Shown one piece after another: positions 19,350-20,974 of a stretch of 64,000 bases of DNA. This DNA comes from Streptomyces changanensis (GTDB lineage: Bacteria > Actinomycetota > Actinomycetes > Streptomycetales > Streptomycetaceae), in NCBI RefSeq assembly GCF_024600715.1, contig NZ_CP102332.1, positions 3,844,001 to 3,908,000 on the forward strand. Reading direction: 5' to 3'. The position numbers and the translations under genes were made by a program. Under the pieces are notes generated by a model that was given only the letters and a program-made list of their open reading frames with translations, did not search any database and had not been told where the DNA came from. Positions within the stretch are counted from its first letter, which is position 1; every line of letters starts with the position of its first letter.

Positions 19350-19475
19350 ATGGTTTCCGTGAGCTCTCCCTATGACGCCCCAGTTTCGCAGACGCGGAGG
19401 ACTGACGCCCTGCCGAAATCGAGGTCTGGAAACTCTGCAACTCCCGGCACAGCCGAGCAGGGGAACCCCTTGTGA
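19350..19475 (+). pseudogene. Orphan duplicate of the hemL 5' end
   Basis: A short frame starting ATG at 19350 or GTG at 19359 reads VSSPYDAPVSQT, which parallels the start of the intact hemL 299 bp downstream (VSYSYEAPVSQS). Over the seven codons 19371-19391 versus 19670-19690, 17 of 21 bases agree and all four differences fall at third codon positions, so both were once coding. After residue 12 the frame loses similarity and stops at TGA 19473-19475. I read it as the displaced original or duplicated start of hemL, cut by the insert that follows. Confidence 0.65.
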
Positions 19476-19657
19476 AACAAGATCGTGAGGGAAGGCGTCA
19501 CGCCGAAGCAAGGCCACCGGCCTGATGTGGTGAAACCGGAGCCGTGAAAGGGAGCACGGCCCACCCCCGTTTCCCGCGGGACCGCCCCGCCGCCGCACTG
19601 GTGGCAGCGCCCGCAGCCCAGCCGTCCGTCCACTCGTTCTCGCAGGTCAGGACCCAC
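19392..19657 (+). mobile_element. Short insert with RNA-like folding between the two hemL starts; possible group II intron remnant
   Basis: 266 bases with base composition clearly less GC-rich than its surroundings up to about 19560. It contains several small hairpins with GAA/GAAA-type loops: GGGG-AA-CCCC (19461-19470), CTTGT-GAA-ACAAG just after it, and GCCGTG/CACGGC at about 19543-19562, which encloses an AAAGGGAG ribosome-site-like sequence. Such motifs are seen in the 5' domain of bacterial group II introns ahead of their reverse transcriptase gene. No reverse transcriptase and no canonical domain V are present, so it would be a remnant. An unrelated structured leader is possible. Confidence 0.35.
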
Positions 19658-20974
19658 GTGTCGTATTCATACGAAGCCCCAGTCTCACAGTCGCTCTTCG
19701 ATCGCGCCTCGCAGGTGACGCCCGGCGGCGTGAACTCCCCCGTCCGGGCCTTCCGCGCCGTGGGCGGCACGCCCCGCTTCATGGTCTCCGGTACGGGGCC
19801 GTACCTCACCGACGCCGACGGGCGGGAGTACGTCGACCTCGTCTGCTCGTGGGGGCCGATGATCCTCGGCCACGCCCACCCCGAGGTGATCGCCGCCGTC
19901 CAGGACGCCGTCGCGCGCGGCACGTCCTTCGGCACCCCGGGTGAGGGCGAGGTCGCGCTCGCGGAGGAGATCGTGGCGCGGGTGGCGCCGGTCGAGCAGG
20001 TGCGGCTGGTGTCCAGCGGCACCGAGGCCACCATGTCGGCGATCCGCCTGGCCCGCGGCTACACCGGCCGCAGCAAGGTGATCAAGTTCGCGGGCTGTTA
20101 CCACGGTCACGTCGACGCGCTGCTGGCCGCGGCCGGCTCCGGCGTCGCCACGCTCGGCCTGCCCGACACTCCCGGCGTCACGGGGGCGCAGGCGGGCGAC
20201 ACGATCGTGCTGCCGTACAACGACCTGGAGGCCGTGCAGGAGGCGTTCCACCGCCATCCCGGCGAGATCGCCTGCGTGATCACCGAGGCGTCCCCCGGCA
20301 ACATGGGCGTCGTCCCGCCCCGCCCCGGCTTCAACCAGGGCCTCAAGGACGCCTGCGCGAAGAACGGCGCCCTGTACATCTCCGACGAGGTCATGACGGG
20401 CTTCCGCACCTCGAAGGCCGGCTGGTACGGCGTCGACGGCGTCACGCCGGACCTGCTGACCTTCGGCAAGGTCATGGGCGGCGGCTTCCCGGCCGCGGCG
20501 TTCGGCGGTCGCGCCGACGTGATGGCGCACCTGGCGCCGGCCGGCCCGGTCTACCAGGCGGGCACCCTCTCGGGTAACCCGGTAGCCACCGCCGCGGGCC
20601 TGGCGCAGCTGCGGCTGCTGGACGACGCCGCGTACGCCCGCGTCGACGCGGTGTCGCGGGAGATCCAGGGCCTGGTGACGGACGCGCTCACCAAGGAGGG
20701 CGTGGCGCACCGGCTGCAGAACGCGTCCAACATGTTCTCGGTCTTCTTCGCCGACCGCGAGGTCCGCGACTACGAGGACGCCAAGCGGCAGGAGTCCTTC
20801 CGCTTCACCGCCTTCTTCCACTCGATGCTGGCGCAGGGCGTCTACCTGCCGCCGTCGGCGTTCGAGTCGTGGTTCGTCTCCACGGCCCACGACGAGCGCG
20901 CCGTCGAGCGGATCGCCGCCGCGCTGCCGGCGGCCGCCCGTGCCGCCGCGGAGGCGACGGAGGGCGCCGCATGA
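19658..20974 (+). CDS. hemL: Glutamate-1-semialdehyde 2,1-aminomutase
   Basis: A 438-residue PLP enzyme that converts glutamate-1-semialdehyde to 5-aminolevulinate in the C5 haem pathway, feeding hemB. The class III aminotransferase fold is complete: TPGGVNSPVRAF, DLVCSWGPMILGHAHP, SSGTEATMSAIRLARG, YHGHVD, ISDEVMTGFR and the PLP lysine in LLTFGKVMGGGFP near residue 270. The GTG at 19658 (VSYSYEAPVSQSLF) has AGGA about 6 bases upstream and matches where family members begin. A duplicate of this 5' end lies 299 bp upstream. It overlaps the next gene by 4 bases (ATGA). Confidence 0.97.
   Translation: MSYSYEAPVSQSLFDRASQVTPGGVNSPVRAFRAVGGTPRFMVSGTGPYLTDADGREYVDLVCSWGPMILGHAHPEVIAAVQDAVARGTSFGTPGEGEVALAEEIVARVAPVEQVRLVSSGTEATMSAIRLARGYTGRSKVIKFAGCYHGHVDALLAAAGSGVATLGLPDTPGVTGAQAGDTIVLPYNDLEAVQEAFHRHPGEIACVITEASPGNMGVVPPRPGFNQGLKDACAKNGALYISDEVMTGFRTSKAGWYGVDGVTPDLLTFGKVMGGGFPAAAFGGRADVMAHLAPAGPVYQAGTLSGNPVATAAGLAQLRLLDDAAYARVDAVSREIQGLVTDALTKEGVAHRLQNASNMFSVFFADREVRDYEDAKRQESFRFTAFFHSMLAQGVYLPPSAFESWFVSTAHDERAVERIAAALPAAARAAAEATEGAA

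What the first reader, a model, noticed from the sequence alone, without database searches (positions are those of the whole stretch)
19350..19693. Duplicated 5' end of hemL separated by about 270 bp
The first codons of hemL occur twice in the same orientation, 299 bp apart. Codons 19371-19391 and 19670-19690 share 17 of 21 bases and every difference is at a third position, so both encoded YxAPVSQ. This suggests an element entered the 5' end of hemL and the reading frame was rebuilt, either by a copy carried in or by duplication. It is rare in a core haem gene and would place new control in front of hemL.
Basis: partly seen in the sequence, partly recalled or inferred. Interest (0 to 1): 0.75.

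Follow-up and report, generated by a model that had tools for sequence, protein, structure and literature searches.

The report
Old hemL start left beside promoter
Many Streptomyces carry the first codons of the haem gene hemL twice: the copy next to the promoter looks like the gene's old start, left behind when translation moved to a second start downstream, and a short stretch of it is still kept nearly unchanged, probably as a control site.

Summary
The repeat is real: 17/21 and 27/38 bases match, 299 bp apart. Within the window alone it is only marginally above chance; comparison with relatives establishes it. It is not a strain-specific insertion. Of 200 distinct Streptomyces hemL loci, 157 carry both copies at 117-491 bp spacing, 34 carry one, and 9 fit neither. 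Seven of 8 outgroup loci have one copy, with a -10-like box just upstream of a GTG or ATG start, as in leaderless genes. So the promoter-proximal copy (GTG 19359) is most likely the ancestral start. The downstream copy (GTG 19658, preceded by AGGTCAGGA) is the present HemL start. Two-copy loci split cleanly: in 58 the old -10 is intact and no CTACNCT box is seen; in 99 the old -10 is gone and such a box lies closer to hemL. Copy 1 is not kept as a peptide, but CAGTYTCGCAGAY inside it is nearly invariant, even where its codons and the old promoter have decayed. I read this as stepwise relocation of the start and then the promoter, with a cis element left in place. Nothing points to a mobile element, a known RNA family or a conserved leader peptide. 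Transcript starts and the element's partner are untested.

The parts
19273..19294 (.). Conserved upstream block GATCATCGTGTCAGTGACCTCC, used here as the promoter-side anchor; 107 bp before the copy-1 motif
   Evidence: distance 105-108 in most of the near clade, mostly 118-143 in others, up to about 217 in two-copy loci
19342..19353 (+). CTGACACCATGG: putative ancestral hemL -10 region (hexamer CACCAT 19346-19351, 7 nt before GTG 19359)
   Evidence: recognisable (one substitution allowed) in 58 of 157 two-copy loci; NANNNT at -12/-13 of the start in 7 of 8 outgroup loci, against 4.8% of upstream positions
19359..19391 (+). Copy 1: ancestral hemL start, GTG plus ten codons (VSSPYDAPVSQ), now a remnant
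19380..19393 (.). Conserved nucleotide element CCAGTTTCGCAGAC (CAGTYTCGCAGAY) inside copy 1
   Evidence: only exact match to CAGTYTCGCAGAY in the genome
19359..19475 (+). Short upstream frame starting at the old GTG (38 codons plus stop), probably translated if the old promoter is active; not conserved as a peptide
19394..19639 (+). Variable spacer; in this strain and 5 close relatives longer than in most near relatives and with a shared block TGAAACAAGATCGTG; no Rfam match, no clear conserved structure
19640..19652 (+). TCGCAGGTCAGGA just before the present start; putative ribosome-binding region
   Evidence: CAGRTCAGGA before copy 2 in 55 of 58 old-promoter loci
19658..19690 (+). Copy 2: present hemL start, GTG plus ten codons (VSYSYEAPVSQ)
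19658..20974 (+). hemL, glutamate-1-semialdehyde 2,1-aminomutase, 438 aa
   Evidence: TIGR00713, 596.2 bits against cut-off 527.3

Best explanation
Ancestrally hemL was a leaderless gene: a -10 box lay about 7 nt before a GTG start and the first codons were GTG AGC TAy ccN TAy GAN GCC CCN (inferred from outgroups). In the ancestry of most sampled Streptomyces, new sequence together with a second copy of the first ~11 codons came to lie between this 5' end and the gene body. HemL is now translated from the second copy, behind an SD-like sequence (inferred). In loci like the window the old promoter is kept, so the transcript should begin at the old GTG, carry a short throw-away frame and then a leader of about 300 nt in all (inferred). 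In other lineages the old -10 decayed and a new -10-like box arose closer to hemL. Copy 1 was not erased because a cis element, CAGTYTCGCAGAY, lies in its codons 8-12. It is held at nucleotide level whether or not those codons still encode HemL (shown statistically). I think it is most likely a protein-binding control site on the DNA rather than a coding or RNA feature, because it survives in the group where the old -10 is gone and at widely varying distances from the new box (inferred).
For: Outgroups: 7 of 8 loci outside the genus have one copy with an NANNNT box at -12/-13 of the start, a match that 33 of 688 upstream positions of these loci show by chance; the eighth, L126, has a box but a leader. 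Two-copy state in 157 of 200 Streptomyces loci. Copy 2 of the old-promoter group has a shared wording distinct from single-copy genes (TCA at codon 4 in 49 of 58; CAGRTCAGGA before it in 55 of 58), which suggests one origin of that cassette. Promoter split: CTASCCT between the copies in 0 of 34 loci with the old -10 and 50 of 50 without (expectation about 0.5 and 0.6); in the 73 two-copy hold-out loci 0 of 24 and 45 of 49. The 4 exceptions read TACTCT or TACGCT; with the pattern widened after that to CTACNCT (N not A) it is 0 of 58 and 99 of 99, and none of the 99 shows the old -10 even with two substitutions. Element: the base after the scanned motif is A in 84 of 84 and 73 of 73 hold-out two-copy loci. 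Synonymous differences in the PVSQ codons: 4 of 136 in single-copy genes, 67 of 232 in copy 2 of the old-promoter group (Fisher 3e-11, rows not independent). Copy 1 codons 3-7: 15 synonymous, 90 nonsynonymous; copy 2: 16 and 17.
Against: No transcript-start or protein N-terminus data were available. The -10 boxes fit TANNNT at two of three fixed positions only (first T absent), and GTG starts are the minority in leaderless S. coelicolor mRNAs (AUG 76.4%, PMC4895711, passages seen). Single-copy loci are scattered over the hemL tree (at least 13 changes), some nested, with moderate branch support, among two-copy loci that lost the old -10, so the order of events is blurred by loss or recombination. 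No duplicated sequence is clearly detectable beyond the N-terminal stretch. The motif positions used for scanning are partly fixed by the search pattern (one substitution allowed); only the flanking positions are free of that bias. A DNA-binding partner is a guess: the exact motif has no second site in the genome.
Confidence: 0.68

Rival explanations
1. Copy 1 is a second promoter: GTGAGC as -35, 16 nt, CAGTYT as -10, CGCAG as discriminator and the invariant A (19392) as transcript start, giving a leader of about 265 nt.
For: The -35 consensus NTGACC and -10 TANNNT of S. coelicolor (PMC4895711, passages) are partly matched. TGAGC is kept upstream in many loci, with 1-nt indels in several that would change the spacer rather than a frame. 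The A is invariant.
Against: C at the first -10 position is C in 157 of 157 loci and never T, although the pattern allowed one substitution. Single-copy genes, where such a promoter would lie inside the gene, keep the same wording (31 of 34 GTT, 34 of 34 CCA).
Confidence: 0.15
2. Copy 1 is a regulatory leader peptide, translated from a leaderless frame, that controls hemL by attenuation or reinitiation.
For: Start codon at the expected place in 54 of 58 old-promoter loci; of the 34 frames examined, 33 are open and end before the hemL start; the other (L111) reads a stop there.
Against: Amino acids at codons 3-7 drift freely (15 synonymous, 90 nonsynonymous). Frame length varies from 12 to 59 codons and the tail is not conserved. 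The start is present in only 41 of 99 loci without the old -10. No convincing conserved structure was found in the spacer.
Confidence: 0.08
3. A mobile element or its remnant inserted into hemL in this strain and carried or made the second copy.
For: Extra sequence is present between the copies; a 141-base stretch is shared at 86% with one other genome and a 54-base stretch at 78% with a second.
Against: Apart from one 44-base match at 87%, no second copy in the genome; no match in 72,556 plasmid or 50,697 phage records; 3 of 392 genus genomes match, including its own, and the two others at hemL. Spacings over 157 loci range without a clear break from 117 to 386 bp, with one at 491.
Confidence: 0.04
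4. The similarity is chance: two unrelated short frames that happen to share codons.
For: A 21-mer match as good occurs in 51 of 200 shuffles of the region.
Against: The two copies recur in 157 of 200 loci, and the start is shared with single-copy outgroups.
Confidence: 0.01

Closest known systems
Leaderless genes of Actinobacteria (TA-like signal class of Zheng et al. 2011, PMC3160421; passages seen)
   Same: Outgroup hemL and, by the same box, single-copy Streptomyces hemL have a -10-like box about 12 nt before the start codon.
   Different: In most sampled Streptomyces the gene has lost this state: the leaderless start survives only as an upstream remnant and HemL starts downstream.
Amino-acid attenuator leader peptides of Streptomyces (trpL, ilvL and others, table in PMC8079986; passages seen)
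   Same: Short frame upstream of a biosynthetic gene on what is probably the same transcript.
   Different: No run of one amino acid, no conserved peptide; no conserved structure found in the six spacers folded.
Promoter turnover and partial gene 5'-end duplication (general processes, recalled)
   Same: A new -10-like box appears nearer the gene where the old one is lost.
   Different: The relic start carries an element conserved at nucleotide level across the genus, so it can be followed through the steps.

Membership tests
HemL, glutamate-1-semialdehyde 2,1-aminomutase (TIGR00713) | Score above the curated cut-off over nearly the full length | tested here: met
   596.2 bits against 527.3, residues 10-423 of 438
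Leaderless gene (ancestral and single-copy hemL) | -10-like box (TANNNT) about 12 nt before the start codon | tested here: inconclusive
   NANNNT at -12/-13 in 7 of 8 outgroup loci against 4.8% of positions, but the first T of TANNNT is absent in these
Leaderless gene (ancestral and single-copy hemL) | Transcript start at the start codon | not testable with these tools
   start-site tables are in supplements that could not be opened; hemL has no occurrence in the main text of PMC4895711, PMC8079986 or PMC8780764
Mobile element insertion | Further copies, defined ends or element genes | tested here: not met
   the spacer of about 250 nt is too short to hold a transposase gene
Known cis-regulatory RNA | Match to an Rfam family | tested here: not met
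   no hit at gathering level in the window; only two weak hits, both on the other strand, at relaxed level in 19000-20200
New cis-regulatory RNA | Conserved, covarying secondary structure or unusual stability | tested here: inconclusive
   z-score +1.03 for 19350-19700; a six-sequence consensus fold gave no convincing shared structure, but pair counts were not made
Leader-peptide attenuator | Conserved peptide | tested here: not met
   15 synonymous and 90 nonsynonymous differences in 290 codons

The most novel reading that the evidence does not exclude
The genus preserves the steps by which a core gene goes from leaderless to leadered: single leaderless start; then start duplicated with the old promoter kept and a leaderless upstream frame; then old promoter dead and a new promoter nearer the gene. 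Through all of them an unrecognised, hemL-specific operator that first lay inside the gene's codons stays in place and pins the relic.
Probability: 0.4. Interest if true: 0.65.

Novelty: new variant of a known kind. Interest (0 to 1): 0.5.

Why it matters
How bacterial genes change between leaderless and leadered translation is an open question, and intermediates are seldom seen (my view, not searched exhaustively). Here one core gene shows several arrangements in one genus, so each step can be tested by start-site mapping in existing strains. The conserved element also suggests an unknown regulator of hemL in Streptomyces; no such control turned up in two paper searches of an open-licence library (1 paper; 15 of 178 listed, titles and abstract starts only). 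It also explains why hemL 5' ends in Streptomyces are easily misread as insertions.

Tried and rejected
Recent insertion or mobile element: rejected. Structured RNA: Rfam search, single folding and a six-sequence consensus fold gave nothing convincing. Tandem duplication of the whole promoter region: in 34 loci the spacer was compared with the upstream region; 5 reach z of 2 or more against shuffles (highest 3.2, L011; 2.7, L107), the rest do not, so no clear support. Leader peptide: rejected on codon statistics. Motif as a shared regulon site: the exact pattern CAGTYTCGCAGAY has one match in the genome, this one, so no other target was identified; mismatched matches were not searched. Order of single- and two-copy states by tree: scattered, at least 13 changes; I could not decide between repeated loss and recombination of 5' ends. 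Literature: five searches were accepted; passages only were seen in five papers, listings for the rest. Rows dropped before counts: further loci of genomes already counted (L027-L032, L118, L120, L123, L124), the useless L122, and L002, L024, L026 without hemL, 10 of 100 hold-out loci identical to others over their last 300 nt. Early extraction errors: L115 and L035 were first read on the wrong strand and were corrected. The motif pattern was also widened by hand between (L066, L075, L096 became two-copy).

Full report
What is there. The repeat is exact as reported: 17 of 21 bases, all differences at third positions, 299 bp apart, extending to 27 of 38. In the window alone this is marginal: 51 of 200 shuffles reach the 21-mer score and 3 of 200 the 38-mer score. 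hemL itself is an ordinary family member of 438 aa from GTG 19658.

Relatives. I searched 61 genomes (own plus 60 relatives) with the region, a collection of species genomes with HemL (80 named loci kept of 570 that encode a relative, itself a capped list), 392 genus genomes with the middle stretch and 245 genomes of the order with HemL (places listed for part of them), and fetched 100 of the listed places as a hold-out. After removal of duplicates, 200 distinct Streptomyces loci were classified: 110 in the first set and 90 in the hold-out; 157 with two copies, 34 with one, 9 neither (no motif, no anchor, or truncated). Copy spacing is 117-323 bp in the old-promoter group and 134-491 in the other. 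The sample leans towards HemL proteins similar to the window's.

Direction. Outside the genus 7 of 8 loci have a single copy with an NANNNT box at -12/-13 of a GTG or ATG start; such a box stands before 33 of 688 upstream positions of these loci by chance. This is the arrangement described for leaderless bacterial genes (PMC3160421, passages). The exception, L126, has a box but a leader. In the window the same box is CACCAT (19346-19351) before GTG 19359. The fit to TANNNT lacks the first T, so leaderless transcription is inferred, not shown.

Two groups of two-copy loci. In the first set (84 loci) the old -10 is recognisable in 34 and not in 50. A CTASCCT box between the copies occurs in 0 of the 34 and in 50 of the 50; about 0.5 and 0.6 were expected from shuffles. 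It lies 66-105 nt before the copy-2 reference point in 44 of the 50, up to 260 in the others. The hold-out, classified by the same patterns, gave 0 of 24 and 45 of 49. The 4 exceptions read TACTCT or TACGCT at the corresponding place. With the pattern widened after seeing them, the pooled count is 0 of 58 and 99 of 99, and none of the 99 shows the old -10 even with two substitutions allowed. So loss of the old promoter goes with gain of a new box. Rows are related, so the count is not a number of independent events.

What is conserved in copy 1. In the old-promoter group codons 3-7 of copy 1 differ from the majority 15 times synonymously and 90 times nonsynonymously (290 codons); in copy 2 it is 16 and 17. 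Copy 1 is therefore not held as a peptide. The PVSQ codons of promoter-proximal copies are held at nucleotide level: 4 synonymous differences in 136 codons of single-copy genes against 67 in 232 codons of copy 2 in the old-promoter group (related rows, so the Fisher value overstates). The base after the scanned motif is A in 84 of 84 and 73 of 73 two-copy loci, the next a pyrimidine in 84 of 84 and 73 of 73. Information falls to a mean of 0.4-0.8 bits over positions 15-40 in two-copy loci. The motif positions themselves were partly fixed by the scan, which allowed one substitution.

What the element does. It stays where the old promoter has decayed, and its distance to the new box varies from 37 to 368 nt over 99 loci. 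This speaks against a coding role and against a fixed RNA role, and favours a DNA site. A second promoter within copy 1 is possible and is given as the main rival. The only exact match in the genome to CAGTYTCGCAGAY is this one, so no regulon was found.

The spacer. The window and five close relatives (L033, L034, L035, L036, L115) share a longer spacer with a conserved block around TGAAACAAGATCGTG. It has no match in plasmids or phages, no Rfam match and no convincing structure. I regard it as a clade-specific expansion of a generally variable spacer.

History. Copy 2 in the old-promoter group has a shared wording (TCA at codon 4 in 49 of 58; CAGRTCAGGA before it in 55 of 58), so the cassette probably arose once there. 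The tree of 118 hemL genes puts single-copy loci in many places (at least 13 changes), some nested, with moderate support, among loci that lack the old -10 although they have it themselves. Simple deletion cannot explain those; recombination of 5' ends or retention can. This is unresolved.

Verdict. A real and widespread feature, best explained as relocation of the hemL start, and in one group of its promoter, with a conserved cis element left in place. Ordinary in its parts, interesting as a visible series of steps.

Noticed in passing
window 19273-19294 and 19342-19353: The divergent gene's side and the hemL side carry similar boxes (CTGACACGATG on the minus strand, CTGACACCATG on the plus strand); in some relatives (L022, L025) both change together to CTGAGAC, in others (L003, L008) they do not.
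   Followed up: partly
L063, L084, L087, L097, L104: A further arrangement with no copy-1 motif found; in L084, L087, L097 and L104 hemL begins with extra residues (MAEANN) and a TACGCT box lies just before the start. These loci are scattered on the hemL tree.
   Followed up: partly
L066, L096: Both copies carry the same altered wording CCAGTGTCCCAG, as if changed together or ancestral to that clade.
   Followed up: no
window 15719-15976: Degenerate GC-rich tandem repeats (periods 5, 10, 15, 26).
   Followed up: no
window 18591-19223, minus strand: Divergent frame of unknown function beside hemL (210 aa, or 145 aa from an inner start); no NCBIfam match for either.
   Followed up: partly
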